Shown: one piece after another, positions 115 to 27,368 of the stretch
Layout: the number at the start of each line of letters is the position of its first letter
How positions within the stretch are numbered: the stretch's first letter is position 1
From: Romanomermis culicivorax
Taxonomy: Eukaryota; Nematoda; Enoplea; Mermithida; Mermithidae
Direction of reading: 5' to 3'
NCBI GenBank assembly: GCA_963922205.1
Contig: CAWUHX010000004.1
Coordinates: 1,116,001-1,180,000, forward strand
Length of the DNA: 64,000 bases
Program-made: the position numbers and the translations under genes
Notes under the pieces: model-generated
Databases searched by the model: none
What the model was told of the DNA's origin: nothing
The model's input: the letters and a program-made list of their open reading frames with translations, nothing else

Positions 115-293
115 AACTGCCCAGAAGTAACATGAACTACGATGTATTGCCTGTCATTCACCTGTCATGTGCATCATTACTACAATTTGCATATTTTTAA
201 CTGCTAAAAAACCTGGATCCTGTTTTTTTAATCTGAGTCGATCGTTGAAGGTGGTAAACTTGAACTGTTTTTTAATTCTTAAATTTTTTTCAG

Positions 294-765
294 TCTGTCT
301 TGGTCAGCAAAGGCTACTGCAGCTTTGAAAATGATGCGGTCCATCTCTTCAGTGGAAGGTATAGATTTATACGCTATTAATTCTGCTTCCCCAGGATCGT
401 TCGACCTCATTTTGGATCAATGTCCAAATTTACGTTATTTTTCCGTCGACATCCTGAATGCCGAACAAATCCGGAAATTGCCCCTTAAAGCGCCCAACTT
501 GCAATATTTCCTAATAGACGACTGTTCAAGGAGGGACTTATCCCTAATCAAAGACGCATTAACATACACAGTTCAAAATTTGCCAAATTTACATCAATTA
601 TTCATTCCTGAGGTGCTGTATGATTTATTGGTAAGACTCGAGACGATCAAACGTTTGTCTAGGCAAAAAAGATTATCGATCATTACCGGCTGGCATTACC
701 GTTTTCCAGACGACTTGATCAATGAATGGATTCATCTTTGCTGCCAAGGAAACCCGTCCACCTAA
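294..765 (+). CDS. Last exon of an F-box/LRR-type host gene (partial)
   Basis: The exon opens after a pyrimidine-rich acceptor (run of T then CAG at 291-293). It is read in phase 1: one base completes a codon begun upstream, then LSWSAKATAALKMM and so on to a TAA at 763-765. The product ends with leucine-rich-repeat-like text such as LDQCPNLRYFSVDIL and LPLKAPNLQYF. It is clearly paralogous to the terminal exon at 59858-60341, sharing SAK.AAALKM, LEGIDLY-like, LILDQCPNLRYFS, RKLP.KAPNLQ and WIHLCCQ, with the same acceptor phase. By analogy with that gene the missing 5' part should carry an F-box, making this a likely SCF ubiquitin-ligase substrate adaptor. The function is inferred from the paralogue. 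The upstream exon is not visible in this window. Confidence 0.7.
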
Positions 766-2430: not shown

Positions 2431-5400
2431 CGGATACGCGTGGCTAAGGCTTGGTTGCAACGCTCAACTTCCCCATTGGCAATGGGATGATATGGGGTAG
2501 TGTGAATTTTCTGAGTATTGCATAAACTGGTGATCCGTGAGAAGAGATCGGATACAAAATCCGAACCACGATCACAATGGATGATTTTTGGGGACCCATG
2601 ACGGCAAACAATTTTGGTTACGAATAGCTTGGCAATAGTAGCTGCAGTGATGTCAGGGGTCGGGAATGCCTCTACATACTTTGTGAAATAATCGATGAAA
2701 ACGACAATGAATCGATTGCCGTCTTCAGTGAGGGGTAATGGTCCCATGCAATCAACACCAACTCGATCAAATGGGCCAGTCGGCTGAATTGGTACCAAGT
2801 TTGCATGTACTTTGAGCCTAAGAGCTTTCTGTGTCTGGCATGGGTGGCAAGTTTTGCAGTAACGTTTGATATCACGGCTCATTTGGGGCCAAAAATATTT
2901 CTGTCTGAGCAAGTGTAAAGTTTTCCGGGCCGCAAAATGACCTGTGAACTTGCTGTCATGATGTGAGGCGATGAGATGCTGGACTTGCGACTTGGGAATG
3001 TATAGTTTTGCCTGTTTGTCGACTATACGGAAGAGAATGTTTTGATGCACTGCGAATTTGATCAGAGTAAGGGGGTGTTTTTGGGCAATTTTTGCTAAAA
3101 TACTTTTGGCAGTTGGGTCAGTGCATTGGAGTTCGGCAAAATTTTTCTGTTGCTCTTCTTGTTCAGTTGCTTCAGCTTCCAAAACCGAATTGATAGTGGA
3201 TATTTCAGGGCGGGTTTCTAATTGCTCGATGTCAAAGGATTGTTTTGCTGTTTGCGAGGGGAATCGAGAAACTGCATCTGCGTTGCGGTTAGCAGTGCCT
3301 TTCTTGGGTCGAATGTCTAACTGGATACCAGAGAGGGCTAATCCCCAATGGGCAATGCAAGGGGACGGGTTTTCCTTTTGTAAGACTGCCTGAATTGCTG
3401 TGTGGTCAGTGTGTACAATAAAATGTTGCTGGAAAAGGTAGGGGCAGAAATACTTGACAAACTCAACTACTGCAAGGGTTTCCAACTCAGTGATCGGATA
3501 GTTGCGTTCTGGGGGTTTCAATGTGCGGCTCCCAAAAGCAATGGGGCGATCCTGACCTTTACTATCTAGCTGACTGAGAATGGCGCCGATTCCAAGTTTT
3601 GAGGCGTCGGTTTGCAGAATAAACGGTTTTGTGAAATCGGGGTGCTGCAGTATTAAGGCATGAATGAGTAATTCTTTTAGCTTAGTGAATGCATTTTGCT
3701 GTTCAGGGCCCCAGGAGAATTCAGAATTCTTTTTGAGTAGCGATGTGAGTGGGCTAGAAACTTGGGAGCAATTTGGGATGAATCTGCGATAATATGAGGG
3801 TAGGCCAAGAAATGACTTAACTTCTTTTGAGCTCTTGGGGGTGGGTATGTCATAAATGGCCTGTACCTTATGGGGATCTGGTGAAATGCCTTGCTGAGAA
3901 ATGACGTGGCCTAAGTATTGGACTTGGGGCTGGCAGAATTTGCATTTTTGTATGTTTAGTTTAAGGCCTGCTTGTGAGAATCGGGCAAGAATAGTGTCTA
4001 AACATTCCAGCATTTGGGCATGGGAGTCTGCGAATACCAAAACATTGTCGAGATATACAAGGCATGTGTTCCATTGCAGACCCGAAAGAATAACATCCAT
4101 TAACCTTTGGAATGTGGCTGGGGCATTGGTGAGTCCAAAGGGGAGGTAATGGAATTGATACTGGCCGGCTGAGCAATTGAATGCATTTTTTTCTCTGTCT
4201 GCTTGTGCTATGGGAATGGAATAATATGCATTGGATTGGTCAAGGGAGGTGAAATATTTCATTCCACGGAGGGTGTCTAGAATTTCGTCTATACGGGGTA
4301 AGGGGTAGGTATCTTTTTTGGTGACTTTGTTGAGGCCTCTAAAATCAATGCATAAACGATGGCCTCCATCTTTTTTGGGGACTAAAACTGTCTTGGTACA
4401 CCATGGGGAATTGCTTTGGCTTATGACACCTGCTGCTGCGAGTTGCTCAACTTCTGCTTGTATGATTTGCTTTTCTTTTGGGGAAGTCCGATAAAGTTGT
4501 CTACGTACGGGTTGAGAGCCATTGGTGTCAATTGTATGTGAAACAAGGGTGGTTCTACCTACGTCCATTTTGGATTTAGCATATAGTGTGGGATACTTCG
4601 ATAGGGCGCGTAAGAGTTGTGTTTTCTCAGTTTCTGTGAGGTCACTGGAGGCTAAATTAACATTTTCTTTTAACCATGTGAATGTATCAAAACAGTTGGG
4701 CTGGTTTTGCGTTGAAGGGGTTAGATTAGTGGGAGCATTTTGTTTTGGGATGTAACAAGAGACTGTGCCAATGCATGTTCCAGGGTAAAGAATTTGAGCT
4801 GTGTCTTGTGTATTCAGGACGGATATGCGTATGCGACTGTTTTGATTTTCCGAGATACAAGCTGTGAAATGGACTTTGGGATTCTGCTTGGGTTTCGGAG
4901 TGAATTCGAGCTGTTTAACTTGTAGGTACGATTTGGGCAAGGGGACAGTAAATTCGGTAACTGTACGGGGTGGCAATTCTAATTTCATGTCTAGATAAGT
5001 TCCACCACGGGTCGAAAGGGGGCTATATTCTAGGCCATCACAAGGTAGTATGACATTGCCAAATTTGACCTGTGATTTTTGATTGTTGATAGTGTATTCC
5101 GAAAATCGACTGAGAAAGTTTTTGCCTAGAAGGATGTCTGCTGTGCAATCTTTTTGGACATGGACCATGATTGTTTCCTGGATTGTTTGGGCTGTCACTG
5201 TGACAAAAGTGGTCCCTACAAAGTGAATCGGAAGATTATTTGCTGCTTTTGCTTGGACTAGCGGGGGTTTCATGTCTAACTGTAGGATTTGAGCGATTCG
5301 GGAATCAATGAGTGAGTAAACTGCACCAGTGTCAATCATGCCTTTTGTCATTAATTTGCCGTTAAGTGTGATTGGAATATGAGGGGTATGTTTCTCAGGT

Positions 5401-6326
5401 ACATTTTGGGGTGGCTTATTTGATGCAGATTGGTGAATTTGATTAATGAGTCCGATTGCAGGAGTTCGGGGGGTATCAATATCGACAAGGACGTATTTCT
5501 GCTGTGTTTGTGCCCCACAACGATTAGCTAATTCTAAGAGAGCATGGCCCAATAATGGGGGAATGGTCTCATGTAAATGTCTGTTGTTTGATGGTATTTC
5601 GTATGCATGTTCATGTGTAACCTGATGCTTTGGGGAGGGGAAATATTTTCGAAGAACGAGAAACGAATAAAAGACGCCTGCAATAACTACAGTGATAACG
5701 GCTAGATTGATAATGATTTGCAGGGGTCCTCTGAGTAAATTGTTTAATCCGTCCGTGAGACTTTGGGTGGTACCGGTTATTACATGTTCTATGCCTTGAC
5801 CGGCGCCAGAGAGTGTATTTCCGAGTGCTTGGCCAGTGCCTGAGATCATGTTGTAAACTGTATCCGAATTGAGAGACATTTGGGCGGTGTAATTGACGAG
5901 TTTTTTGACAACGTTTTCCAGTGTGTGAGTTTTGTAAATGTATTGTTTCAAAAAGAGTAAGTTGGTTGAAATAGTTGCAAGTTGATCATGAAAAATGGTG
6001 GGTGTATTAAAATGGAAAAGGGAGAAATTTTGGTTCCAGACGATTTCTAAAGGTAAATTTGTGACATGCGGGGATCCTGTTTCACTGACCCATGTATTAT
6101 TCTGTTTGTAAAGGGCTACATGCATGTGATGGCAGTCAACGGTTTGTGAGAAAGGGGTCAAATCGTTGCCTCCTGGATTTGAAAACATGAGTTCGGTTCC
6201 TATGAGGATGGGCAAAAGTTTGTAGCATGTTTGGTTGATTTTATGGTTGTAAAAGACTTTGGATGCATTTACCTGCTTGCAGGGCCAGACTGTGAGGGCT
6301 TCTCCTGTGAATTCTGCTATGATGTC
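2175..6326 (-). pseudogene. pol: Envelope C-terminus, protease, RT, RNase H, truncated integrase
   Basis: Residues below are numbered from a non-ATG codon at 6215; the open frame extends back to the TGA at 6327. A Gly-rich amphipathic stretch (about 125-162) precedes a membrane span at 165-188 (IIINLAVITVVIAGVFYSFLV) and a tail. The aspartic protease has DTGA at 295-298. RT spans about 560-740: LDQSNAYY carries the first catalytic Asp, but the YxDD box reads YLDN at 721-724. RNase H follows (QTDAS D870, ITELE, HTDH D937). Integrase has the zinc motif HH..GH plus C1123-x2-C1126 and core residues D1155, D1215 and E1251, with exactly 35 residues between D1215 and E1251. After about residue 1270 the frame diverges, so the integrase C-terminus is missing. 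Protease to integrase order is Ty3/gypsy. The copy is dead. Confidence 0.85.
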
Positions 6327-7094
6327 GGTTCACTGTAGGAATGCACGCGCTCCAAGGGTTGCATCAAGACGCAAAATTTGCCATACGAGATCAAGGTGAC
6401 GCTGTGCCTGTCTGCATAATTCATTCCATACATTTTTGAAATTTTGAATTTCGAATTCCTGTATTTTGTCTGCTAGATGATTGAGTTTCGCATTAATGGG
6501 TTCAAAATCATCAAAATCGTAGAGTGTAGTATGGGTTTCGTTGGTTTTTGGGGTTAAAAATGCATTACAATGTGGTGTGCTTTTGTCTAATTGTACAATA
6601 ATGCCTTGTTCGGTTAGAATGCTGTCTTGGATTTCTGGGCAATTGGGGTTTGAAAAGAGTGTGTTTTTAACCGAAAATGCACCTTGTAGCTCTTCTATTA
6701 TCATGTGGGTTGGCGTGAGTTTTATGGGATGTGTATTTTTGTATTCGAAGGGGCATAAGTTTTCAAATGCTGTTTCATTCCAGATAATGGATCCGTCGGC
6801 TGTGACACAATGACCTGATGTCGGTTTGCATGACCCCAGGTCACCTAGTGTACCTGTCATAGATTTTCCATTCCAAGATGCTATTTGTCCTATTTCTATG
6901 ATGACGTTAGTGACCGAGGTACAATGGTCTGTACAACACCATGTGTATTCTAGGCTTAAGGAGTTATTTGTTGACCGAAATCCTGGTTGGGTTTCGTATA
7001 ATTTTTGACCGTTGTGTTCTTTGTCTATAACGATTGCCTTACAAACATGTGGGGTTAGATTTTGCATTTCGGTTTGGTCGAAGACAATACCTTT
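6327..7094 (-). pseudogene. env: Envelope-like ectodomain, middle segment
   Basis: This continues in the same frame after the TGA at 7095 and runs to a second TGA at 6327-6329. It is rich in paired cysteines (WCCTDHC, GSCKPTSGHC, ENLCPFEY), has N-glycosylation sequons (NNS, NETA, NETH) and a TADGSIIW motif, and has no similarity I recognise to Pol. Together with the upstream signal peptide and downstream membrane anchor this is the build of a type I viral fusion glycoprotein. The pattern C..H/G-C-V-T-A-D-G..I-W...CP reminds me of negative-strand arthropod-virus glycoproteins such as Chuviridae rather than the baculovirus F-type envelope of classical errantiviruses. That assignment is tentative. 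The two TGA codons could be decay (for example CGA to TGA) or readthrough sites. Confidence 0.6.
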
Positions 7095-9110
7095 TGATCA
7101 AAAAAATCCTGTATTAGTACAAATTTTGCGTTTGCGAACACTGCATTTGTATGCGTCTGTAATGTGGGGCTTAGTGGAGGGGATATAGATTTCTCCGAAT
7201 GTCTGTACGGGTTTGTCTACTGTGGAAGGGGGCATGCATGATACAAGTTCTGGTATGCTGACTGAGTGACCGCTGAATGAAGTTCGACACATCTGAAATT
7301 GGGCACTACACGATGTTGGGATTATTATACAAAGAAAAATACAAAACAAGGGCCAATAGAATGTTTTAGTGGAGGCGGCGGGGCACTGTGTTTTTTTGCT
7401 CTGCTCGATTTGGCGTGGCGGTTTTTGGTGTTGTGGTTTTGCGATTTTGAGCTGGGGGGGTGGCCGGTTTGAAATCTGAACATTCTGTAAAACTTTAGAA
7501 GTTGAGTTATGGGATGGGGTTTGGACTTGCTTACTTATGGGGGTCGGTAGAAGTGTTTGGCGGGGGCGGAATTGGTAGGGTTCGGGGGTCAGGCCATGGA
7601 GAAGGGATAACAAGTTGCGGCCTGTTTTCGACGGGGTTTCGGGGGCAGTGGGCGGCGTAGTGTCTTGCTTTCGGGGGATCTTGTAGCCTACGGGGATGAT
7701 GGGCGGCGATTTTTCGATTTTTGCGGCTTCAGGCGTGGGGGGTGGTGACATGGCGCACCAATTGGGTACGTCCAGGTCAAGGACGTATTCGTCACTACGG
7801 CGGTGGGTGTTGGGCATGATTGTTCCTAAAGTAGTCTGAGGGCCGTTAGTTATGGCGGGTAATTTTGAGTAAAATGCGGGGTCATCAATGTCCATGAGGG
7901 GTTGGGGTTGCCTGTACTCAATGCAGTTTTGAATATTACGACTTTGCTGATTTGGAGAATATCTGCTTGTATGACCTCTCTGCTTGCATATGAAACATTG
8001 AAAATTGGAGTAGGGTTTTGAAAGGCAGTTATCTGATCTATGTCCTGTTTGGGAGCAGTGGATGCATCGGCTTTTACAATCACGTGTACTATGATTATTA
8101 TGGAAACAGATTTCACATGATTTTCGGGTGCCTACTGATTTACAATTACGAGCTACGTGTCCGATTTGTCCACACTGGAAGCATGTGGGCTGTCTAGGGG
8201 TGGTATTGTTCCTGTAAGCATTATTCCTGCTGAAAGTATTGTTACTGAAATTGTTGTAGCTACTCTGTTGTGGGGGTTGAGGTTTTTGTTTGATCTGCAA
8301 CTGTAAATCTTTTACTTGTTGTTCTAACTGATGCAAAAGGTCCTGTTGATCTGTATTTTTGGTTAGGGAAAAGATGGGTTCGGGTTTTGGGGGTATGAAG
8401 GGAAGGACGTTAGATTTTAACTCCTTTCTAAGAATTTGCTGTTCAATGTAAGCTGCTTCGTCTGACATTTCTTTTAGAGTCGCGAACCTTCTATACTTAA
8501 TTGCTTCCCTGATTTCGTTTTGCATGCCTTCTACAAAGAGGGGTTTTATGATCATTTCTCGTGCATCTGTGTTAAAGTTACGGTAGGTGAGGGTTGCGAG
8601 ATGTTCTAAATCAAATAAGAATTCCGTTACTGTTTCTGAACGCTTTTGTTTTCTTTCGCGTAAGAATTGTTGATGTAGCTCATTATCTCTATTGTTTGGG
8701 AAAAATGCCTGTAATGCGACTTTATACTGCTCGTATGTGTGGGGAGGGTTTTCGGAATTTGCTAAACTTTTGAATTTTGCTAACGCAGCTCCTCCTAAAT
8801 GAATTTCTAAACATGCCAACTTTAACTGTACGTCTGTATCTTTCATGCCTTGGAGTGCCATGAATTGTTCTAATCTTTTGTTCCATTCACCAAAATGTTG
8901 GGTCACGCCGCCCGTGAATACTGTAGGTTTCGGGTAGAAATTGTTTGCCATGTTATTACGAATGTTTGCTGTTCTTAGATCGTCTATTAGGGTAGGGTTT
9001 ACTGTATTCTGATTCAATTGTGTGCGTAGGGTATGAAAATGTTCTGAAAACAAATCGTTTATCTGTTCTCTAATGGTTTCTCCTAAATGATCTTGCGTTT
9101 GGTGGGTCAT
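7095..9110 (-). CDS. gag: Gag plus start of the envelope-like module
   Basis: The first in-frame ATG after the LTR and primer site is at 9110, chosen as the start; the open frame upstream lies in LTR and leader. The Gag core (about 8350-9050) is helical, with a retrotransposon-gag-like FLRERKQKRSETVTEFLFDLE stretch. Three canonical CX2CX4HX4C zinc knuckles follow, with first Cys at about 8183, 8117 and 8066. A fourth near 7997 has its last Cys replaced by Ser. A proline-rich linker leads to a hydrophobic stretch (FYWPLFCIFLCIII, about 7364-7310) with small residues after it (CSA), as in a signal peptide, then Cys-containing extracellular-type sequence. The frame stops at TGA 7095-7097, but the same frame stays open beyond it. 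The basic run RKRK just before the stop could be a furin-type site; that is speculative. Confidence 0.75.
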
Positions 9111-9330
9111 TCTTGGTTTGTGTTGGGATTTCTGCTTAAATGCTTCAATTTTTGCTTCACGCTGTATTCGTTTGAATGCATCGCTTAATGTTTTGATGGA
9201 GGGGATTTCCAGTTTGCTTTCTACGAATACTGTCTTACTGTAGGAAATAATTACTACTGTATTATCTAATGCTTCTAAATGCCCGGATAAGAGTACACCT
9301 AATTGGGGGCAGGGAGTTCCAGTGGTTAAC

Positions 9331-9348
9331 GTAACGGTACGGTCACCA
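9331..9348 (-). promoter_or_regulatory. Primer-binding site
   Basis: After the LTR end and a TATTC spacer the minus strand reads TGGTGACCGTACCGTTAC. The initial TGG pairs with the CCA end of a tRNA. I cannot say which tRNA: a tRNA whose 3' end is CGGTCACCA would fit the first nine bases. Confidence 0.55.
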
Positions 9349-9353
9349 GAATA

Positions 9354-10252
9354 TGTAACGACCAGATTTGTGTGAGGTACTTTACTTCTAACCAATCGGT
9401 CGATACGGCGGGGACAAACAACGGGATGGGGGCGCGGGCATATGGTTACAATAAAACAACGGTTGATCGACGGTCGCTTGAACGTCGACAATAAAATGCG
9501 TTTCGATTTATAATACGAACGGGGGCCTCGGTTTAAGTTGCTTTCGGATAGTCGGCCGCTTGCAAATGTATAAAAAAAGGACGAGATGAGCCAGGAAGTC
9601 AAAACGTAAAAACCACAAGAATAAGAATGATCGAATCACGCTTTGCTTCTTCTTTTATATGACGATTTTGGCCACTCCCTGGGCGTTGCGGGAGGTCGAG
9701 CTTCTGTCCATCTTCTTCCGCCAATCGTCGTTTCCTGCTACGCTTTTTATGCTTACTTAGTTACGCCTCTCTAACGCTTTCCTGGTACGGTATGCTTTCT
9801 GTGCTTTGCTTGCTTCCTACGGTGGGCTTGGCCACACCTTTGTGCTTCTGTGCATGCTTCCTGTATCGGTTTCTTTGTATACACATGTTTTGTGGGGCTG
9901 CTGCTACCATTACACTCGAGACTACTGTCTGGCGGGGCTTCTAGGTATTTTACTGTGTGCAGGTGTTGTTTACGATTTTTACGGGGGATTACGGTAGCTG
10001 TGGAATGTGTAGTTTAGTGTAGGTTCTAGGGGAACAGCTGCCGTTTGTGCAAATTAATTAGGGCATCTTAATGGGCTACCGGGGTGTGAACGGATCAAAA
10101 TAAAGTACTTCACGTAATTTTGTAGGAATGTTTGGGTGTGAATCCCAGACATCCTTGAGACGATAAAATGTGAAAATTAATAATATTTAATAAATGTCTA
10201 TCACATACAGTATGCTACATATTTACAGTACTGCTTTAGCAGGTACGTTACA
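9354..10252 (-). repeat. 5' long terminal repeat of the retroelement
   Basis: On the minus strand the LTR starts TGTAACG (10252) and ends CGTTACA (9354), a perfect 7-bp inverted terminal pair enclosing 899 bp. It is followed after five bases by a primer-binding-site-like TGG. A TATA-like ATATAAAAG lies within it at 9652-9660. The open reading frame that reaches up to 9602 runs through the LTR and is not evidence for coding there. Confidence 0.8.
9652..9660 (-). promoter_or_regulatory. TATA-like box in the LTR
   Basis: Minus-strand ATATAAAAG, about 300 bp before the 3' end of the LTR. It is a plausible core promoter that would define the U3/R boundary shortly downstream. Position and motif only; no transcript evidence. 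Confidence 0.4.
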
Positions 10253-10472
10253 ACAAGACAATTAGTTTGCCATGTTTTTTCCGATAAATTTAAGCAAATT
10301 TATTGATTTTAGACTGAGCAACCAATAATTAATCTGCAACCAAATTTTTTCCCAAGTTGCACATTGCAACCTGGCCTGTGCAAAAAAAAACCCTGGTTGG
10401 TCATAGGATCCACGAAAAGAATCTGCAATGTGGAAAAAATTTTGTGATCTCTCAAGTGTTTTCAGCTCTTTC

Positions 10473-10714
10473 CACTGTTTTTTTCCACATTTGCAGTATA
10501 ATGTGGAAAAAATCTGAAATGTGGAAAAATTTTCCAAGGTTTTTTCACAAATGTGGAAGAAAAATTTGAGGTTTTCATTTCATATTGAAAAGATGCATTT
10601 TAGTGCATTTTAAAACATCCAAATCATTATTATTTATTACCATGCTCAGGCGCAACTTTTAGCTTGTCTACCTTCACTTACCATCCAATCTTTGATAATT
10701 TTTATCATCCTGAA
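10473..10714. mobile_element. hAT-like CACTGTTTTTTTCCAC family element, left part
   Basis: This begins CACTGTTTTTTTCCACATTTGC and matches, inverted, the end of the complete family member at 53500-54519, including TGCATTTTAGTGCATTTTA and GCTTGTCTACCTTCA. It is cut at 10715 by the Merlin element, and the family sequence resumes at 16541 (TTCATGTTTAATTGGC). The host repeat therefore serves as an empty-site reference for the Merlin insertion. Confidence 0.6.
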
Positions 10715-10722
10715 CGTATTAT

Positions 10723-11270
10723 AGTATTACTGCAGCTGGTGCACACTACCTCATAGCGTTATAATGATAAGTGTATATACAGTATATCTGTCAGATTATC
10801 GATTTTTGTAGCTAAGAGACTAACTTGTTCATCAAACTCCAAAATAGCCAAAAAAGCTAAAAACGTGTCAAATGGCATGGACACCACCTTGGGAGGCTTG
10901 GGCACGACCACACGACCCGCGGGAGGTCAAGGGGTAAGGGGCTGCACAATTTCTTGCAAATGGGGCTGTTTCTTGGAACCTTTTCAACAATTTGATTAGA
11001 ATATTGACTACTAAAATGAGCGTTAACTGCGACATATTGTGAAGGGCCAGGCCACATGCCCCGCGGGAGGTCAAGGGGTAAGGCGCCGCACAATTTCTTG
11101 CAAATCGGGCTGTTTCTTGGAATCTTTTCAACAATTTGATTAAAATATTGACTACTAAAATGAGCGTTAACTGCGACACATTGTGAGGGGCCAGGCCACA
11201 TGGCCAGTGGGAAGTCAAGGCGCTTCATTTTTACTTATTTTTAGTTTTCTTATCAATTTTTTCTCCAGTT
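10723..11270. repeat. Left terminal inverted repeat with 144-bp units (Merlin copy 1)
   Basis: After a unique outer ~210 bp, a 144-bp unit recurs in direct orientation: unit starts at about 10937 and 11081, then a partial third to about 11227. Each unit has a GC-rich core (GGGAGGTCAAGGGGTAAGG) and the AT-rich stretch TTGACTACTAAAATGAGCG. Because 144 is divisible by three, long open frames run through the array; they are artefacts. Confidence 0.85.
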
Positions 11271-12599
11271 TTTTATCACATATTTAGTTATTTTTTCTTT
11301 ATTCATTTTAATTTATCTTTTTTCAGTTTATGAATTTTTGTCGAGTTGTTGTTTTTTGATTACTTTTTTACTTTCTCGTATGTATTTATTTCTTTAGTTA
11401 TAAATATTTTTTTTCAATTTTTTGTCTTTTGCTTGCTGTCTTTTTTATTCATTTTTAAATTTTTTTTTGTTTTTTTCAGTATATTGATTTATTTTTTCAA
11501 GTTTTGATTTTGATTGAAAATTGAATTTCTCTGTTTTTGTTTTTTATTGATTTTGTTGTTTCCAAGTTCTTTCATTTTTTTATTTATTTTTTTGCTTTTG
11601 TCTCTTTTGTCCGTTTAAATATGGGTTTCATTGTCAAGTTTGTCGTTTTTTTATTGACCAATTGTAGTTCAAGATGCCACACAATTATGTAATTTTTGTG
11701 AAAGCACACAGCAATCATAAAATTTATTTTTGATGTCACACAACATGATATTTCAGACTAGATTGGATAATTTTGTGGCAGTTCATTTAAGATCACATTG
11801 AATGCATTATCCTTGTTCAAGCCCCGCCACCAAAATTCAGCCATGTGACCAAGCAAAAGGTTGTGACTTGTTCCGCCCATCTTCCACATTATTATCATTT
11901 TGGCGGCGCCCCAGCTAGTTTCAATTTGTTGAGTATTAATGCGAGTTACAGGGTCAACAAAAAATAAGGAATGGTTGACCATTTTGTGTATATAGTTTAA
12001 TGCGCCCAGTCCATTATAAGCGGCCCATTTGTCACTCCTGATCATTGTTCCTAAATGAAATTGTGTCCCATTAGCTCAACCATATTAAGTGTGGTTAGCT
12101 TGTACTGATTTTTTATACCCATCCACACCTCTATTGTACTCCTACATCAGATTTTAAAGAATGGAACAATCTATTTTACCAGGTGCAACATTTCTTTGAA
12201 TAATCAGATTTAACGTATTTGCGTCATGACCCATAACTTGGAAGAAACGATGGTCCAATTTATTGTCTTGCCGCTTTTGAACCAAGCCAAATATCCAAGG
12301 ACCATCGACCACAGCTCCATAGTTACGCCTGGCTGGTCCCACTAGATTTCCTAGAAACATGCGACCCGCACCATTACCGGCTGGCTTTCTCCGTCCCCGG
12401 AAGTAACTTTCCTCAATTTCAACAATCTCATTGGGGCCACCCATTAATGGCACATTGTTCAATATGTTGGCCAACATTTCACGAATATAGTGAAACCAAT
12501 CGATGATTGTATGATCTCCTTGGCCAATAATGGTGCCTCAAAAGTTTTGTGATATTTGCAGAGATTGTAGGAGATGTGTCATGAATAGTGTTGTGAAGC

Positions 12600-13030
12600 A
12601 TTTCTTTGCTATTTTCCTTTGTTATTTCTCTTTGTTTTTTTATTGTTTTTGTTTTCCCTTTGTTATCTCTCTTTCTTTCTTTTTGTTCCCTTCTTTGTCA
12701 TTATTTCTTTCTCTCTATGCTATGTTTCCCACTTTTTCATTTATTCATTCTTTTTTTGTTTTTTTTCCTTTCATCTTTCTTCCACTCAAAGGGTTATATT
12801 TTCATCAAGTTAAAGCGACATTCATGGCAGTGAATTCTCATTCAGGGTAAAAAAATCGTCCTGCATGAAAATAAGCTGAAGGATGGAAAAGTTGAGAAAA
12901 TATGAAAGTAAAAAACAGAGAGAAAAGGGAAGAGAAGAAAAAAATAAAAAGGAAAAGAGAAAACAAACATAAAAGATGAAGAAAGAAAACGAAAATAAAA
13001 AAGGAATAGAAGGTGAGACACTTTGGAGGG
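12600..13030. repeat. Polypyrimidine tract followed by polypurine tract, copy 1
   Basis: 12600-12790 is almost pure C/T on the plus strand and 12895-13015 is almost pure A/G. The open frames here, full of F, L and S, are composition artefacts. This lies in the Merlin intron region next to the hAT insertion. Confidence 0.7.
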
Positions 13031-13069
13031 AAGGATTATCTCTTTTGAGGACCATTCTTATGTAGTTGA

Positions 13070-13916
13070 CAGAGGTGCAACAGTTAACTGGAACCAGAAC
13101 CGTAACTGATAAGAACCAATGAAAATGTAGGAACCAGAACTGAAGTAAGGCCAAATTAAAGAACCGAAACTGGAACCGAGAAAATAAAAGAGAACAATTG
13201 GTTCCTTTTTCGTTCCTATTGATAAACATGAAACAAACAGGAATTTTTCAACAAATTTATTTCAACCGACTAGTATATGAATTTAACAACAGGCAGGTTA
13301 TATTTCATCACAAGCAGTTTTTCTGCGGTTTCGCCCTCCAACTTCTTTCTTCTTGGCTGATAAATCAAACCGGCGGAGCTGAAAAGCTGTTCAGATGCGA
13401 CGCTTGTTGGGGGCGCACTGAAATATTTTCTCGCAATTTTGGCTAATTTTGGAAAATTCGATTGGTTGTGTCGCCACCAAGTGAATGGTTTGGATTTATT
13501 TGTAAATTCATCGAAAGCAAGTTTGTGATTTAATTCTAGATGTTTTTTTAAATTGGAAGTGCTTGCACCACCAGATCTTGACATATTGAAACCACAAGAG
13601 TTGCATTTCGCCTTATTATCATCCGTCAAGGTAAAATAATCCCAAATTAAACTCCTTGTTTTTGACATGATTCAAAGTGCAATCGATAGTAGGTAAGTAA
13701 GTGAAATTATTTTTTGCGCTAAAAAATAAACGTGAATTAGATGAATAATTCTGAAAAATTCTCAACATTTTTTGCAGCCCATTATGGAACCGGAACCGAA
13801 ACCGATCGGTTCCTAAAACTTTGGAACCAAAACCGGAACCGGAACCGAAATAGTTAAAATTTGAATACCCAAACCGGAACCAATAATTGCTTAAAAGTGG
13901 AACCGTTGCACCTCTA
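13070..13916 (-). mobile_element. hAT deletion-derivative transposon, 847 bp, copy 1
   Basis: Exact 8-bp target duplications GTAGTTGA flank it (13062-13069, 13917-13924). The terminal inverted repeats are CAGAGGTGCAAC at the left and TAGAGGTGCAAC inverted at the right. Subterminal GGAACCNGAACC repeats occur at both ends. It encodes a BED-hATC fusion on the minus strand. The size and the missing catalytic core mark it as a non-autonomous internal deletion. Confidence 0.9.
13270..13668 (-). CDS. BED zinc finger fused to hAT C-terminal dimerisation domain, copy 1
   Basis: This 132-residue frame starts MSKTRSLIWDYFTL. A BED-type finger has C22-x2-C25 and a HLELNH pair (about residues 8-50). It joins directly (FTNKSKPFTWWRHN, about 55-68) to a hAT dimerisation domain: FPKLAKIARKYFSAPP, SVASEQLFSSAG and KLEGETAEKLLVMKYN. 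The several-hundred-residue RNase-H-like catalytic core between these parts in full transposases is absent. The fused frame is intact from ATG to stop. Such a protein keeps DNA-binding and partner-binding parts without catalysis, like known truncated-transposase repressors (for example KP of the P element). Repressor activity is inference. It could also just be a fossil whose deletion happened to stay in frame. Confidence 0.8.
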   Translation of the reverse strand: MSKTRSLIWDYFTLTDDNKAKCNSCGFNMSRSGGASTSNLKKHLELNHKLAFDEFTNKSKPFTWWRHNQSNFPKLAKIARKYFSAPPTSVASEQLFSSAGLIYQPRRKKLEGETAEKLLVMKYNLPVVKFIY

Positions 13917-14531
13917 GTAGTTGATGAGAATAAATGTACTGAGAATGACTCTTTTAGGGGTCTTTTTTTAACTACTTCTTGCTTCAATCTTTTTGTGCTG
14001 AAAAGTCGAAAATGCATAGTAACATTTTCCAAAATACAAACTCAAAACTTTGCATGTCTGTTTGACGCCCATTTCCATTGCCCAACACCATGTAATAAGT
14101 AAAATTTTTGAGCTCGACAATTTGACATTTGAACATCCAAGTATATCGAATCGTGAAAGCCATGTGGCATTTCCTTGACCGCCAATAAAGCTGCCACAAT
14201 TTCTAAGCGACTTATATCTTTTGCAACTATTGCAGCAAGCATAATGACTACGATCTGTGTATTTAATGGAATTGATGAATGTATCATAATACACATTTAC
14301 ATCATGGGACAGGGCACATCAAACCGAAAATTCCAATCATTGATATTTCCTATCATGGTCAATTGACAGACAAAATTATTCAGAAAGAGCAGGAAAAAAA
14401 GAAAAAATATTCAAAAAAACAAATAGACATGCCTGTAATTGTACACCCTCCAAAAAACTATTGCATGCATGAGTACTCAAATTTTAAATGCTTGTAAATA
14501 CTGTACTTCGAATTGTCATTTGGTGCATAAC

Positions 14532-14970
14532 CATACATGTTTTTTGGGGGGGGGAATGCTATGGGAACCCCCCCAGAAATCGTCGACCATATAACTAGCC
14601 ATTGGGCGACCCCCCCCCCCAAGATTTTCCAATCCTATGGCTAGCCATATGGTAGCCCTAGAGACCCCCATAGTTTTAGTCAGGAAAATACTGAAAAATG
14701 TCATTTTTTCCATGAAAAATGTCAATTTTTGAACAAAAAATGGTCAAAAACGTCAATTTTCTCAGCGCTTCACGCCATAAGTACATATTTTACCATTTTT
14801 TAGACAAAAATTACTACTTTTTAAACCGTTTTTCGGACATTTTTCATGGAAAAAATCGAATTTTTTTTCCTTCAGGGACCCCTCCCCCCAAAATTTTGGG
14901 AATTACTGACCCCCAGCCCCAAAAAAGTGCTCCAACCCCCCCCCAGACCTCGGAGCTCTGTTACATGTAT
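14532..14970. mobile_element. Miniature inverted-repeat element, TACATGT family, copy 1
   Basis: Ends are ATACATGT at the left and TTACATGTAT at the right, with flanking GTGCATAAC on both sides (14523-14531, 14971-14979), a perfect 9-bp duplication. Inside are long G/C runs, GCTAGCCAT motifs in opposed orientation and no coding potential. Relatives lie at 22636-23073 and 48841-49262, with fragments at 60465, 61085 and 63640. Nine-base duplications would suit Mutator or Merlin; assignment open. Confidence 0.75.
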
Positions 14971-15849
14971 GTGCATAACACCCCTACAATTTGAGTCAAC
15001 GATTATTATATGAATGATTAGCAAATTTTCCAACACCAGGTACATCAGGAAGGAGGCTATTTCTCATGGCAAACCTGTTAGCCAATGTTTCATCCTGACA
15101 TAGGTCAACTATTTCTGTTATGTTCAGGTCAATTCAATTCAATGCTTGCACAATGGCCATAATACATAAAAATTAAGAAAAATCCTGAAAAATTTATGAC
15201 CTAATAGCTAAAGATGAGTTTGATTATTTATTTCAATGAAGAAAACAAAAAATATTACAACAAAAAAAAATTACAACCATTTTCAGTTTTAAAATTGAAA
15301 ACAAAATTGTCATGGTAACCGGCATATGGGGTCAATAGTTCGATGGTTAAAAATGATAGCCATTCACCTAAGTCGTCGTTCGATTAAAAATCAGGACTTA
15401 ATATTTTCGAAAATTCCAATTCTAATAAAAAATTGTTGGCCATTGAACATTTTTCCACAATTTTTGAACGTAAAATTTGACATTGATCCAAAGTTCGATT
15501 CGAAAATTGAAATTTATTCGATCACTAGAAAAATAAATGAAATTAGAAAAAAATTAAAAATAAAAAAAAAAATTTAAAAAACTTCCAAAAAATTTTTTTT
15601 TTTAATTCAAGAAAATAAAAACAGAAAAAAATAAAAACAAAAAGCAAGTGCAGCACATAGATCATAAAATTCATAACAAGCCAAAATTGTTCCGGAAAAA
15701 ATTTCAGAAAACTAAAAAATGTAGAAGTAAACTACAAAAAAGTGAAAAAACAGATTGAAAAATTACGAAAAAAACATTTTTTGACGTAAAATAAACCAGA
15801 AAAACAAAATAAACAAAAAATAACTAAATATTCCATAAAAAACTGGAGA
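14971..15849. other. Non-coding interior of the Merlin element
   Basis: No gene is supported. About 15530-15850 is A-rich (many AAAAA runs) and is a degraded inner extension of the right inverted repeat, mirroring the T-rich 11270-11640. Confidence 0.5.
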
Positions 15850-16532
15850 AAAAACAGATAAAAAAAGAAAAAAAACTAAAAATAAGTAAAAATGAAGGGC
15901 CTTGACCTCCCGCAAGACATGTGACCTGGCCCCTCACAATGTGTCGCAGTTAACGCTCATTTTAGTAGTCAATATTTTAATCAAATTGTTGAAAAGGTTC
16001 CAAGAAACAGCACAATTTGCAAGAATATGTGCGGCACCTACGCCTTGACCTCCCACGGGGCATGTGGCCTGACCCATCACAATGTGTCACACTTAATGCT
16101 CATTTCAGTAGTCAATATTTTAATCAAATTGTTGAAAAGATTACAAGAAACAGCCCAATTTGCAAGAATATATGCGGCGCCTTACCCCTTGACCTCTCAC
16201 AGGGCATGTGGCCTGGCCCCTCATGATGTGTCACAGTTAACGCTCATTTTAATAGTCAATATTTTAATCAAATTGTTGAAAAGATTCCATGAAGCAGCCG
16301 GATTTGCAAGAAATTGTGCGGCGCCTTACCCCTTGACCTCCCGGGGGTCGTGTGGTTGTGCCCAAGCCTCTCAAGGTGGTGTTCATGCCGTTTGACACGT
16401 TTTTCAGCTTTTTTGGAACTTGATGCGCAACTTGACCTTTTTGCTACAAAAATCGATGATCTGACAGATATATTGTATATACACTTATCATTATACTGCT
16501 ATAGGGTAGTGTGCACCAGGTGCAGTAATACC
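15850..16532. repeat. Right terminal inverted repeat with 143-144-bp units (Merlin copy 1)
   Basis: This is the inverted counterpart of 10723-11270. The CCTTGACCTCCC-type core recurs near 15899, 16047, 16189 and 16333, giving about 3.5 units against 2.5 on the left, so unit number differs between the two ends. The outer ~150 bp matches the left end closely, including TGTATATACACTTATCATTATA and GTGCACCAGGTGCAGTAATAC. Confidence 0.85.
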
Positions 16533-16731
16533 CGTATTATTTCATGTTTAATTGGCGATCTTGCTTGCATATTATATTTTTATATTTAATGAAGATTCGT
16601 GATGATGAATGATAATGAAACAAAATAGATTCCAATTCATAAAAAAATTATATATTTTCTAGTGCGCAATTAAAAAATGTCATTCTAGCTAATGTCCATA
16701 TGTAGCTATTAATGATCAAGATATTGTGGAT

Positions 16732-17185
16732 CAGTATTTTTTTTTGTACTCAGTCCATTTGTACTGGTATCAACGACCTCTCAAAAACCGTTTGTAATTT
16801 GTAAAAAATTGCTGAAAAATGGATTCATTGTTACAAAATGCAAGAAACATGCTGTTAAATATGAATACATTGGCTTTTTCCACGAGACACATAAGAAGAC
16901 TACAAATTCAGACAGATAAAACACTTGATCACAAGGCACATAACATGCGCTAGTGAAATACTCCACAAAAAGCTTTTATTATTATGCCACAGCTGCTAGT
17001 TTGTCCTTTTCGATGTGGACGCATAACAAACAAGTCCTACTAAGTCCATTGATACTGAATACTGACAGCTATTTAGTAACAAAAAATTTTTTTGTCCAAA
17101 AATTTTCGTTTGTACTGATACTAACGAAGCCCAGATTTTCCTTTGTACTCTGGACTGTTTTGTTTGTGAAGTACAAAAAAAACTG
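16732..17185. mobile_element. Small hAT-like element, CAGTATTTTTTT ends, copy 1
   Basis: The left end is CAGTATTTTTTTTTGTACTC and the right end is GTACAAAAAAAACTG. Both ends also carry GTACTNNGNCTG or its complement. Flanks TTGTGGAT and TTATAGAT agree at 6 of 8 positions, a decayed 8-bp duplication. A relative occurs near 46286 (CAGTGTTTTTTTGTACTTTG). The rest of 16541-18264 shows no gene. Confidence 0.5.
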
Positions 17186-19322
17186 TTATAGATGGATAAT
17201 AGTTTGATCTTATTATTGTTTTTGACCCATGTTTTTGAAAACCAACATTTTTCTCAGTTAGTATATATTTTCCCCAAATCTTTTTGGGATCTAAAAAAAA
17301 ATTTGAATTTTGTTTGATAGAAACATTTTGATTTCAAGGAGAAATTCTTGCTGATTAAAAAATCCAAATTCCTGCTTGATTGCCTAGTTTTCGAATTGTA
17401 GTCAGCCCGACTGAAAATTTATTGAATTCTTTTAAAATTGAACCTTCTGCCTAGGATATAAAAGTTCAGAAGAGTCATTTCATTGCATTCTAGAATTTAT
17501 CAAAATTCCAAAAATCCGAGGAAACGTGTTTTAAAAGTCGAAAACTGGTGTGAATCAAATGTAATACAAGAAAACTAGCTTCTGGTGGTTTTTCCAGTAA
17601 AATTGAGCAAATTGTGAGCAACCAAAATTTTCCCCCAAGTTGCACATTGCAATCCTGCCTGTGCAGAAAATTTTGGAAATAATTACTTTCTATATGGCGA
17701 AGCCATTAACATATGTACATCTTAATGGCCATTTAGTAGAAGTAGATATATCTACTTCCACTTTCTAATTAACCCTCAACAGTTTTTATCAATTACGTTG
17801 TCTTATTTTGTGAAATTGTGTAAACTTTCTCTCTCGAAGCTCATACCTGTCATTGAGGTAGTCCCGAATGTCATGAAACTCTACACACAAATGTTGGGAC
17901 GTCTGACAACTAAAAAAATTTGATAAAAAGTGGTTATTTTGACTTCTTTCTGTATATTTTTGAAATTTTCAGCCTTTTTCGTAAGTTTTTGAGACTTTTG
18001 TGGCACCCAAAATATTTTAGAATTTAGGGACACCACCCCAAAATGTTGGGTTTATACCCCGTGCAACTGGTCAAACCTCATGCAGGCAGGGTTTTTTCTT
18101 CGCTGCTTGTTCCGCATCTTGAGACGGTCAAAAATATTTCTGCACTAACATTAAGAACCCCTGAAAGCATTAAGACACAATTTCTGTAAGAATCAACCGA
18201 GCCCTGTAGTCAAGTGTGATAAGTAAAAAATTAAATGTAAGTAAGTGATAAGTAAAAAATCAATCATACCTCAAAAAGCATATTTTGTACAGTTTTTTGC
18301 ACTGAACAACATGCCAGTATTTGTTTGATCTAAAAATCAAAATTCATTCTGTAACATCAATCCAACCTTCAAATTTTTTGCAGTTTCCAAAATTTTAGGT
18401 CACAATTATTGAAGGCCTATAGGTGTTCCGGTATGCAATGCAGATCAATAATTATTTGTCAGTATATGTATCAATGCTTAGGGTGCATGCTTGAAAAATA
18501 TACTCATATGTAGCATCAATATTATGCTTTACACTACACTTTAAATTCCAATTTTTAGCAGTTATCAATGACTCGAATTCCCACATTTTTGTATCCTTAA
18601 AGTCAAATAATGAGTGTCATTGATTGAACTCCACTATGTTATACCTGGACCTCTTGGCCACATACCTACAAAGTTTTATCAAGATAAAAAAACCATTGGG
18701 TGTGCTACAGTGAAGCGAGTGGAAGCCATTTTTGGATCAAATTATAAAATTTTTTGTTTCAAAATGCAGTCATTCACCCAAAATTCTAATAATCCAACTA
18801 AAACTTTTTCACTTTGCAGGTTGACATCTTGGCTATTTACCCGTCAGGTTTGGTCATAGTACACAGGAAATTACACAAAGTGGAATGCATATTTGATTTT
18901 GTTGAAAAAACTTTTGGTACAATATGGTGTTCCATTTAATCGACATATTATTAATTCTAGTCCAAATCGACTACATTGTAGCCACAGTTTGTGGCTACAT
19001 ACCCACCAAGTTGCATCATATTAAAAATGAGAAAAACCACATTCTTTTGGTCAACTATAAGATGAAAGATATTAAAATTTTTAGCAAAAACTGATAAGGT
19101 AGTGAACCAACATGAACTTTTTAGATCTTTCTCAAATAAATGAGAGCCACATAGACAGAGGAAACTATATCAAAGCTAAAAGAAGCGAAATTGCATTTAA
19201 AAGGTGATTATTGACTCTACATAAGGCCAAAATCACATATTTCTGATCACCGCTCATGGCATGCTCTTAGTAATCTAATCCATTCAAAGTCAAAGGAGAA
19301 ATGTACAGATCACATTCATGAC

Positions 19323-19436
19323 ATGAAATGTGACAATTGTGAACAGTTAAAGAAGGCACTGAATAACATCAAAGAGGCAGTGACTCAATTCTCATTCATA
19401 CACTCAATTGATAAAGTTGAAGCTGGATATTTAGTT
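19323..19436 (+). pseudogene. Transposase fragment, N-proximal part, copy 1
   Basis: MKCDNCEQLKKALNNIKEAV and the following residues to SEAS are in the open frame up to the point where the 2.1-kb element enters at 19437. The Cys pair (CDNC) with a preceding His/Asp run resembles a zinc-binding lead-in. The continuation resumes after the insertion, near 21540. Confidence 0.45.
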
Positions 19437-19595
19437 AGTAGTGAGGCCAGCCAGTATGGGGGAGTATGGTTAAGCATATCCCTACCTTTTGTGTACCCCC
19501 CAGTAATTTGTCACTTCGGGTCGATTTATAAGGGGGTATGGTAAACATATATGGTCGATTTTTTGTCGATTTACAGGGGGTATGGTTAAGCATGC

Positions 19596-19795
19596 TATAC
19601 CTGTAAGACTTCTGACCAGTTGGGGTGAGGGGGGGGGGGTAGAAAAAAGTCGAAATTTTCCCAAAAAAGGCCAAAAAACATACACTTCTTCACAAATTTT
19701 TTTAATTTTTTCCAAATGGGGGGGATTGGATGATTTTGGTTACTGGGTTGGCCAAGTTGGGGGGGGGGTCCCCCAGCCCCCCAAGTACAGGTATG
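19596..19795. mobile_element. 200-bp miniature element, ATACCTGTA ends, copy 1
   Basis: Perfect 8-bp target duplication AAGCATGC (19588-19595, 19796-19803). The ends are TATACCTGTA and TACAGGTATG. It carries a GACCAGTTGGGG block and long G runs. A second independent member lies at 55761-55941 with its own 8-bp duplication, supporting hAT-type mobility. Confidence 0.85.
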
Positions 19796-20839
19796 AAGCA
19801 TGCATGTTCTAGAGTTACCATAATAATAGAGTTACGGTAATATTTGGATTATGGTAATATTTGAATCAAAAGTTTCAACTTTGATATTCTACAACTGCTA
19901 AATGAAGAACCTGATAATTTTGAAAAGTAGAACTTTTCTACATATTTAGAATGGTTAGGCGAATCATGCTTTTCTCCATGTAAGATTCTATCACATATGG
20001 TGGCAAACTTTGAAAACAATTTGTTTGTCAAGCTTAAGATTTCTGTGTTGATCAACTTTTCTATCAAACCAATTTTGGCACAGTGTTGGAAATACTATGT
20101 CCATATAATAGATATACATAACTGATTTTTAGTTTTTATGCCTCAGAACAGACAATATAAGTCAACAGTTATTGAATTTTGGATGTGCATGACCAAGTCC
20201 ACATATTATAGAACTCTGTTTAGTTACTCCTCCAAGTGAAAAATCAAAGAAATGAATCAAGAATGGAAAAAAGAAAGGAAAGTCAAATTTGGAACCTGTA
20301 TATGTGTGCTTAGGATGGTATGAGAACAAAAGTTCACTTTCCATACATTAAAAGCAAGCAATAGATCCATATTTCAACCTCAAAGGACATATAACTGACC
20401 ATATAACTTGTTTTCAAAGTAACAAAGCATTTTCCTTAATGATTGTTCAGAAATCAGAAAATGAGAGATTGATGGATGTCATTTTGAGCATTCTATTCCA
20501 TAGATTTCAGAATGCTGATTCCAGCAAAACAATTTGTTCTTGTGGATGTTTGGAATTCATCAAATGATGGGCCAAATTTGAATGCAGGTCATGACCTCGT
20601 GTTTCAACACACTTTTTTTGACGCATGCTTTTCATTGCAGTAGCGTTGTAAAAGCATACTTCAATAACACCAAGGATCCATACCTCGAACCATACTAACA
20701 GCTGAAACCTTTTTTTTGTGAGTCAGAATATAAATGAAATATGATAGATGAAATAGATCAAGAAATCCTAAAATTTGTAATATTATACTGTCTGGTAATG
20801 TGACACTGCCTGGCATGTCTTTTTTATGCAACCTGTTCT

Positions 20840-21300
20840 TGGTTTTTTTGCCTTACTCTTTTCACCTATGTACACTACATGTTCACTGTATGTCTACTTT
20901 TTTCTAGATTGGTTCTCTTTTTTTGCCTTACCTTTTTCACATTTCTATGTTACACGCTCACCATATGTCCACTTTTTTCCACATTGATTTTTTTGCCTTA
21001 CCTTTTCACCTTTGCATGCTACATTTGCACTGTACTTTCATTTTCTCCAGATCGATTTCCATTTTTGCCTTACCTTTTTCACTTTTTGCATGCTACATTT
21101 ACACTGTACTTTTTTCCAGATACGTTTTATTTTTTGCCTTGCCTTTCTTGCTTATGTACACTGTATGTCCATTTTTTCTAGATTGATCTTCGTTTTTTAT
21201 TTGTTATTTACATCCTTTTTTTTCCAAATTGATTTACATTTTTCCATTTTTTTGTTTCTAATCGATTTTATTTTTCCATTTTTTGTTCCACTTTGGTTTT
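20840..21300. repeat. Pyrimidine-rich ~72-bp tandem repeat, copy 1
   Basis: The phrase TTTTTGCCTTACCTTTT recurs near 20850, 20925, 20995, 21068 and 21137, each followed by GCATGCTACATTTGCACTGTAC-like sequence. Five to six diverged units. Overlapping open frames here in all three forward frames are low-complexity artefacts. Confidence 0.75.
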
Positions 21301-21539
21301 CCTTTTTCAATAGAGTACAACCTACAGTAACACAATTATTACGGTAATTCAAATATCACCATAATCCAAATATTACTGTAATTCTATTATCATAGTAACT
21401 CTAGAACATGCATGCTTAACCATACCCCCTATAAATCGGCCAAAAGTGACAAAGTACAGGGGGATACACAAAAGATAGGGATATGCTTGACCATACCCCC
21501 CTATAAGGGCCGGCCTTACTACTTTAGTTGATTAAATTA

Positions 21540-22336: not shown

Positions 22337-22635
22337 AGACCAGCCAGAGGTTGCACCCCTCAATCATAACAGTTCTGGATTTCCATAAAAATCACAACGG
22401 TCATCTTTGAAGAAGAATATGACGATCTTTCAGCTGCCACTCATGAGCCATATTGTATGGAAAGCAGTGCCTTCACTTCAACTGTCCTGAAGAAGGCTGT
22501 ATAAAGGTTTTTGGTCTTAATTGCAACTTGTTGCAGTATCTTGTTATGGGTAACTACAAGCTAATGCCACAGCAAACAAGTTAACATGATATGACAATAC
22601 AAAGCTGTAGTAGAACATTAGAAAAGGTTCAAATA

Positions 22636-24513: not shown

Positions 24514-24692
24514 CAGCACGGGACAAATGGATCGCAACACTCGCTTCAAAAAGGGATAGCCAGTTTTTTTTAGGGGAAAAATGGGGGAGCAACATTTTTT
24601 GACGAGCAACCATTAGCGACAGGTTGAGGTCATACACTCAACAAAAGATTTATGATGTTCAACAGGCAAGTGTGACGAAAAGAAGAACAAAG
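24514..24692. mobile_element. First 180 bp of the fold-back element arm, at the duplication junction
   Basis: Starts CAGCACGGGACAAATGG after TA, identical to 38819-38997. It is truncated at 24692 where copy 2 of the tandem duplication begins. The full arm continues only after copy 2. Confidence 0.85.
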
Positions 24693-24770
24693 GGTTGGTC
24701 ATAGGATCCACGAAAAGAATCTGCAATGTGGAAAAAATTTTGTGATCTCTCAAGTGTTTTCAGCTCTTTC

Positions 24771-27329: not shown

Positions 27330-27368
27330 AAGGATTATCTCTTTTGAGGACCATTCTTATGTAGTTGA

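What the first reader, a model, noticed from the sequence alone, without database searches (positions are those of the whole stretch)
5640..9110. Envelope-like glycoprotein lies between Gag and Pol in one frame
Seen: zinc-knuckle Gag is followed in the same frame by a signal-peptide-like stretch (7364-7310), a Cys-rich sequon-bearing ectodomain, a membrane span (5723-5652), then the DTGA protease and RT-RNase H-integrase. Known: envelope-bearing Ty3/gypsy and Bel/Pao elements, and retroviruses, place env after pol. Inference: this lineage makes a Gag-Env-Pol polyprotein, or placed env upstream with processing by signal peptidase and protease, a novel architecture. Membrane insertion in the middle of a polyprotein would put Gag and Pol on the cytosolic side, which is topologically workable.
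Basis: partly seen in the sequence, partly recalled or inferred. Interest (0 to 1): 0.88.

Follow-up and report, generated by a model that had tools for sequence, protein, structure and literature searches.

The report
Retroelement with envelope inside Gag-Pol
A family of retrovirus-like elements in one unnamed, probably animal, genome carries its membrane-fusion (envelope) protein between Gag and Pol within one long reading frame, instead of after Pol as is usual, and several copies look recent.

Summary
On the minus strand a Ty3/gypsy-type element reads LTR, Gag with zinc knuckles, signal-like stretch, Cys-rich ectodomain, membrane span, protease, RT, RNase H, integrase, in one frame. The window's copy is dead: two in-frame TGA stops split env, integrase is cut short, no 3' LTR remains.

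The same genome (359 Mb) shows the order is not private. In 28 of 28 env loci compared (five subfamilies, env means down to 33% identity) the pieces found keep the order; Gag was matched in 25. Five copies read end to end have one uninterrupted frame, identical LTR pairs and 4-bp target duplications. Their frame ends 9-31 nt before the 3' LTR, leaving no room for a downstream env.

The ectodomain matches class III-type viral fusion proteins (Pfam PF24664; all 68 scored genome hits over cut-off). In subfamily I it is under purifying selection about as strong as RT.

Class III envelopes in gypsy elements are already reported; the Gag-Env-Pol order I found nowhere in the searches made. How Env is made (membrane-threaded polyprotein, or spliced Env-Pol message) was not shown. 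An env-less control and a structure model could not be run.

The parts
9354..10252 (-). 5' LTR, TGTAACG...CGTTACA
   Evidence: read; 88.5% to the LTR of an intact copy (run on 9356-10250)
9341..9348 (-). primer-binding-site-like TGGTGACC, 5 nt after the LTR; same motif after the 5' LTR in 5 of 6 other copies read (C147 differs)
8430..9110 (-). Gag, capsid part (Retrotrans_gag match 8804-8565, just under cut-off)
   Evidence: matched in relatives
7890..8267 (-). Gag nucleocapsid, CCHC zinc knuckles
   Evidence: PF00098; relatives
7365..7889 (-). Pro-rich linker between knuckles and Env; holds a PTAP motif
   Evidence: weakest constraint in subfamily I, dN/dS 0.48
7296..7364 (-). signal-like hydrophobic stretch at Env start
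   Evidence: hydropathy; present in 5 of 5 subfamily representatives
7101..7295 (-). Env ectodomain, piece 1
   Evidence: env1
7098..7100 (-). in-frame TGA stop inside env, this copy
6333..7097 (-). Env ectodomain, piece 2
   Evidence: matched in 28 of 28 loci; dN/dS 0.12 in subfamily I
6330..6332 (-). in-frame TGA stop inside env, this copy
5724..6329 (-). Env ectodomain, piece 3, class III-type fusion-protein core
   Evidence: PF24664 E 5.5e-11, 41.6 bits against cut-off 27
5652..5723 (-). Env membrane anchor
   Evidence: hydropathy 2.40; net positive charge after it in relatives
5400..5651 (-). tail running on into protease without a stop
5106..5375 (-). aspartic protease, DTGA
   Evidence: PF13975 E 5e-8
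3900..4382 (-). reverse transcriptase
   Evidence: PF00078 E 4.1e-37
3330..3713 (-). RNase H
   Evidence: PF17919/PF17917
2415..2999 (-). integrase, cut off at 2415; 3' LTR missing
   Evidence: PF17921, PF00665; end of homology

Best explanation
This is a Ty3/gypsy-type retroelement lineage whose genome encodes one Gag-Env-Pol reading frame. Shown: the order, the single frame in five copies, the class III-type family of Env, purifying selection on Env in subfamily I, young LTR pairs. Inferred: the full-length RNA is translated from the Gag start; the internal hydrophobic stretch acts as a signal on the nascent chain, leaving Gag in the cytosol; signal peptidase frees the ectodomain start in the ER lumen; the second hydrophobic stretch stops transfer, so protease, RT and integrase are again in the cytosol; the element's protease then cuts Pol from the Env tail. 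Gag is left for a time with a membrane-anchoring C-terminus, rather as capsid is in flavivirus polyproteins (recalled). Particles would bud at a Gag- and Env-bearing membrane and spread between cells, germline cells included, by class III fusion.
For: Order constant, for the pieces found, in 28 of 28 loci over five subfamilies. Five copies with one frame from Gag to Pol, LTR pairs 100% identical over 887-912 bp, 9-31 nt from stop codon to 3' LTR, 4-bp duplications. 63 of 150 scored RT hits (of 6,778 candidates) lie in stop-free frames of 2,450 aa or more (Env inside them inferred from length, not read). Env, protease and RT trees agree on subfamily branching for the subfamilies each contains. 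dN/dS in subfamily I: env2 0.12, env3 0.12, RT 0.10, PR 0.08, CA 0.17. A signal-like stretch in 5 of 5 representatives, and an anchor followed by net +3 to +4 in the 4 that reach it. 15 Cys invariant over six env sequences from four subfamilies. Class III type: marginally 74.
Against: No protein, RNA or fold data. Equal Gag, Env and Pol output from one chain would be unusual, and the intact frames show no stop or frame change between domains that could adjust it. Splice-acceptor-like sites lie in the linker of some copies of subfamilies II to V; in two of three II-type copies an in-frame ATG follows 12 nt later. Only 7 of 28 stretches are open from end to end; the rest carry stops or frame breaks. 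Two of the breaks upstream of Env, in C147 and C150, are absent from siblings and look like decay; the others were not examined one by one. The D[TS]G[AS] protease motif was found in I, III and IV but not in the II stretch scanned, though II protease aligns. Copies were chosen by similarity to Env or RT.
Confidence: 0.62

Rival explanations
1. Env is expressed from a spliced or trans-spliced message that begins just upstream of the signal and reads on into Pol (an Env-Pol precursor), while unspliced RNA gives Gag-Env-Pol or is mainly packaged.
For: II copy L031 has TTTTTTCAG 136 nt before Env with an in-frame ATG 12 nt later, and L052 a similar site; III has CTCTTTTCAG and V GATTTTCAG in the linker; the two IV copies have three TTTYAG sites each there. 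C. elegans Cer1 makes CERV from a spliced message (PMC10309623, abstract and passages).
Against: No TTTYAG site lies in the linker of the 4 subfamily I copies examined, nor in II copy L049; density in the linker is higher than elsewhere in IV but not consistently so in the other subfamilies. Env has no stop before protease in the intact copies, so Env would still be fused to Pol.
Confidence: 0.25
2. The Env segment has been kept as a membrane-anchoring module for Gag-Pol assembly inside the cell and no longer serves entry.
For: Gag-Env-Pol fusion would tether all parts to one membrane; no particle or infection evidence exists. Inference only.
Against: The whole ectodomain, not just signal and anchor, is conserved: 15 invariant Cys over four subfamilies and dN/dS 0.12 in subfamily I. 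A mere anchor would not need it.
Confidence: 0.1
3. The window's arrangement is a private insertion, a nested element or an assembly chimera.
For: The window copy is broken and truncated.
Against: Same order in 28 of 28 loci on many contigs, long open frames at 63 of 150 RT hits, agreeing trees.
Confidence: 0.01
4. The order is real but already described: the metazoan survey of envelope-carrying gypsy elements (Chary and Hayashi 2025, eLife.108449) may contain it.
For: That work covers envelope-carrying gypsy across metazoan phyla, per passages of PMC13172572. It is not held here.
Against: No gag-env-pol order in the listings, abstract starts and passages seen (searches; several listings were capped at 10-20 rows).
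Confidence: 0.15

Closest known systems
Envelope-carrying gypsy elements of animals (errantivirus-like) with type III fusion glycoproteins
   Same: LTR element with gypsy-type Pol order and a class III-type Env, as noted for mosquito gypsy in PMC13172572 (passages)
   Different: Env sits between Gag and protease in one frame here; an ORF3 downstream of pol is the usual place for env (PMC5408684, passages)
Anakin: BEL/Pao elements with a chuvirus glycoprotein, mosquitoes (PMC7642597, passages)
   Same: Jingchuvirales-type glycoprotein captured by an LTR element
   Different: BEL/Pao, not gypsy. The passage read on three other BEL-Pao elements places env-like genes downstream of the polyprotein; Anakin's own gene order was not seen. 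PMC10084718 (passages) found no clear capture by gypsy
Cer1 of C. elegans (PMC10309623, abstract and passages)
   Same: gypsy/Ty3-family element; Gag-Pol with no stop between
   Different: its extra ORF lies after pol and does not resemble retroviral Env, by that paper
Flavivirus or alphavirus structural polyproteins (recalled)
   Same: capsid, internal signal, membrane glycoprotein and cytosolic enzymes in one membrane-threaded chain
   Different: no relation claimed or tested; analogy of mechanism only
Romanomermis culicivorax protein A0A915J6I7
   Same: 76% identical over 285 aa to Env of subfamily II
   Different: listed as a separate uncharacterized protein of 357 aa; its neighbourhood was not seen

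Membership tests
Ty3/gypsy LTR retroelements (Metaviridae) | Pol order protease, RT, RNase H, integrase | tested here: met
   relatives
Ty3/gypsy LTR retroelements (Metaviridae) | two LTRs with TG...CA ends and short target duplication | tested here: met
   LTR pairs in 7 of 7 copies examined, ends read in 6; 4-bp duplication in 5 of 6 as delimited, sixth if its LTR end is moved 1 nt. Window copy has one LTR only
Ty3/gypsy LTR retroelements (Metaviridae) | RT placed in a gypsy clade by phylogeny with reference elements | not tested
   no reference RT set was used; only element subfamilies were compared
Errantivirus-type envelope-carrying gypsy | env as third ORF downstream of pol | tested here: not met
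   stop of the frame lies 9-31 nt before the 3' LTR in 6 copies of subfamilies I, II, III; a IV copy has a 441-codon ORF there without an Env match
Errantivirus-type envelope-carrying gypsy | any viral-derived envelope present | tested here: met
Class III / Monjiviricetes fusion glycoprotein (PF24664) | match over the curated cut-off | tested here: met
   41.6 bits against 27; 68 of 68 scored genome hits over cut-off, of 2,320 candidates; 6 of 6 relatives' envs match
Class III / Monjiviricetes fusion glycoprotein (PF24664) | class III fold, fusion loops | not testable with these tools
   structure prediction switched off; PDB profile search is only marginal: glycoprotein B E 0.0073, ORF8 0.018, glycoprotein B 0.3, ribosomal S6 0.8
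Anakin (BEL/Pao with chuvirus glycoprotein) | BEL/Pao-type Pol | tested here: not met
   no BEL/Pao-specific Pfam model among hits (that Pao Pol hits such models is recalled)
Retroviridae | env after pol, made from spliced RNA | tested here: not met
   position only; splicing not testable

The most novel reading that the evidence does not exclude
A lineage of retrovirus-like elements replaced the separate, spliced env gene by an Env built into the middle of one membrane-threaded Gag-Env-Pol polyprotein, flavivirus-fashion, with Gag briefly anchored by the Env signal. It is old enough to have split into five subfamilies and has copies with identical LTRs today.
Probability: 0.5. Interest if true: 0.9.

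Novelty: new variant of a known kind. Interest (0 to 1): 0.78.

Why it matters
Gene order gag-pol-env is treated as near-universal for retroviruses and envelope-bearing LTR elements, and the separate spliced env message is part of the textbook explanation of how they balance Env against Gag and Pol (recalled). A lineage with intact, young copies and Env inside the single frame would show that another solution has been kept by selection. It makes testable how Gag, Env and Pol amounts are set without splicing or frameshifting, and whether Env capture can occur within gag-pol. It also matters for annotation: screens that look for env only downstream of pol would miss such elements.

Tried and rejected
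Rejected: private insertion or chimera. Rejected: a second env after pol in the six copies of subfamilies I, II and III read to the 3' LTR (no room).

Led nowhere: env and RT pieces in IMG/VR (no relatives) and env in genome contigs (none); two protein searches with the broken copy's pieces (none scored; a third, with relatives' envs, found three proteins); PHROGs and NCBIfam; PDB by single pieces; tRNA and Rfam scans. PTAP/PSAP late-domain motif in the linker: in 6 of 7 subfamily I copies examined (only 23 residues of the seventh were scanned) and in the window; in none of 9 copies of II-V examined, of which 3 were scanned only after their last stop; chance in shuffled linkers 1-5%, so weak. 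Splice acceptors: not conserved, inconclusive.

Not obtained: an RT-based control for env-less cousins. The subfamily I RT search was saturated by close hits (96-100% identity), and the subfamily IV RT search did not complete. Host identity and LTR copy number were also not obtained.
Full report
What was checked. The minus strand of the window from 9635 to 2175 is one reading frame in three abutting stretches. [quoted passage not shown] Between them lie a hydrophobic signal-like stretch, a Cys-rich, sequon-bearing segment and a membrane anchor; these two are the only strongly hydrophobic stretches. The window copy is therefore a dead remnant.

What the segment is. The piece downstream of the second stop matches Pfam PF24664, Monjiviricetes viral fusion glycoprotein, at 5.5e-11 and 41.6 bits against a cut-off of 27; the pieces upstream give nothing over a cut-off on their own. 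An alignment of six envs from relatives in four subfamilies has 15 invariant cysteines. All six match PF24664; four match Borna disease virus G (best 6.5e-6), three herpesvirus gB (best 0.0025) and two the rhabdovirus fusion domain (best 0.082). A profile of that alignment against the PDB gives four matches at E up to 10: glycoprotein B (0.0073), a chain named ORF8 whose matched stretch is nearly that of the first (0.018), glycoprotein B (0.3) and ribosomal protein S6 (0.8); this is marginal support. Rhabdovirus G and gB are class III fusion proteins (recalled). The fold could not be modelled.

Is the order constant? The genome holding the window has 359 Mb in 595 contigs. A search with PF24664 scored 68 of 2,320 candidate places, all over the cut-off; it rang in none of 14 control genomes. 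In 28 of 28 the pieces found lie in the order Gag, Env, protease, RT. Gag pieces were matched in 25 of 28; the three subfamily IV loci show only a single knuckle, and one has an upstream ORF with a Ty3-capsid match below cut-off (E 0.021). Protease was matched in 28 and RT in 27. Seven of 28 stretches are open from end to end; the others have stops or frame breaks. Several loci are near-identical copies, so the independent units are the five subfamilies: I (the window's), II, III, IV, V. Mean identity to I in env2 is 52, 44, 40 and 55% for II to V; the lowest between-subfamily mean is 33%, II against IV.

Are there whole copies? For six copies I took three separate stretches each. Five (C382, C51, C10, C15, C8) have no stop from Gag through Pol, LTR pairs identical over 887-912 bp, and a stop codon 9-31 nt before the 3' LTR. 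Four-bp target duplications flank these five. The sixth (C147) has LTRs 99.48% identical over 577 bp and an in-frame stop in Gag that two siblings lack. A subfamily IV copy, C150, has LTRs 98.1% identical, a stop between Gag and Env that two siblings lack, and a frame break in integrase. A search with the window's RT scored 150 of 6,778 candidates; 63 of the 150 lie in stop-free frames of 2,450 aa or more, 22 of them exactly 2,486 aa. Env was read directly only in the fetched copies; for the rest its presence is inferred from frame length.

Is Env under selection? Pooled within subfamily I (12 sequences, 36 to 66 pairs): capsid 0.17, nucleocapsid 0.16, linker 0.48, env1 0.26, env2 0.12, env3 0.12, tail 0.24, protease 0.08, RT 0.10 (dN/dS). 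In II to IV there is little divergence or few pairs; values scatter from 0.04 to 1.99, and env2 is 0.37, 0.90 and 0.70 in II, III and IV. Between subfamilies synonymous sites are mostly saturated. The copies were picked by their match to an Env profile, which may favour well-kept Env.

History. Trees of env2 and RT give the same branching, ((I,(II,V)),III),IV; env3 (without V) and protease (without IV) agree for the subfamilies they contain. The Gag capsid tree, without IV, joins II with V too but its midpoint root falls elsewhere. So Env appears to have descended with Pol since before the subfamilies split.

Mechanism. Topology follows from the two hydrophobic stretches: a signal-like one in 5 of 5 representatives, and an anchor followed by +3 to +4 net charge in the 4 that reach it. 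In III and IV one further stretch each passes the laxer threshold of that call (1.65). That would put Gag and Pol in the cytosol and the ectodomain in the lumen. The processing steps are inference. The spliced-message rival has some support in II to V but no conserved site, and none in the linker of I.

Known context. Chuvirus-type or type III envelopes in LTR elements are known: Anakin in BEL/Pao (PMC7642597, passages) and type III glycoproteins in mosquito gypsy and BEL (PMC13172572, passages). PMC10084718 (passages) reports no clear capture by gypsy. ORF3 downstream of pol is the usual place for env (PMC5408684, passages). Literature searches (listings and abstract starts, often capped at 10-20 rows) showed no Gag-Env-Pol order. 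The broadest survey, Chary and Hayashi 2025, could not be read.

Host. Unnamed. A named relative of Env is from the mermithid nematode Romanomermis culicivorax, 76% to subfamily II over 285 aa. A nematode host is possible but not shown.

Limits. No env-less control, no fold, no expression data; one genome.

Noticed in passing
L060:2684-4006 (with LTRs L059:2249-2934 and L061:43-727): The subfamily IV copy C150 has about 2.5 kb between integrase and the 3' LTR with a 441-codon ORF without Pfam match: an extra ORF where env would normally sit, though env lies between Gag and protease. LTR pair 98.1% identical.
   Followed up: partly
window 10395-24694 and 24693-38999: A 14.3-kb stretch beside the element is tandemly doubled at 99.9% identity: very recent duplication or assembly artefact.
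   Followed up: no
G000:C180:404-910, 8769-9275, 17134-17640: Three env hits exactly 8,365 bp apart, as if elements stand in tandem.
   Followed up: no
L021 and L023 (copy C8): Sequence on both sides of the C8 copy also matches its own LTR (95.5% and 82.8%), as if it had inserted into the LTR of another copy.
   Followed up: no
window 11758-12537 and 13270-13671: Remnants of an ISXO2-like transposase (below cut-off) and of a hAT transposase with BED finger and dimerisation domains over cut-off.
   Followed up: no
window 283-765, 59858-60370, 61411-62655: LRR / F-box-like ORFs; the first two resemble each other by eye; Pfam matches below cut-off.
   Followed up: no
window 7365-7889 (linker): PTAP or PSAP motif, in retroviruses a budding signal (recalled), in 6 of 7 subfamily I copies examined and none of 9 from II-V, some only partly scanned.
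   Followed up: partly
P0003: A relative of this Env (39%) is filed as a gammaproteobacterial MAG protein on a 1.4-kb contig, probably eukaryotic DNA in a bacterial bin.
   Followed up: no
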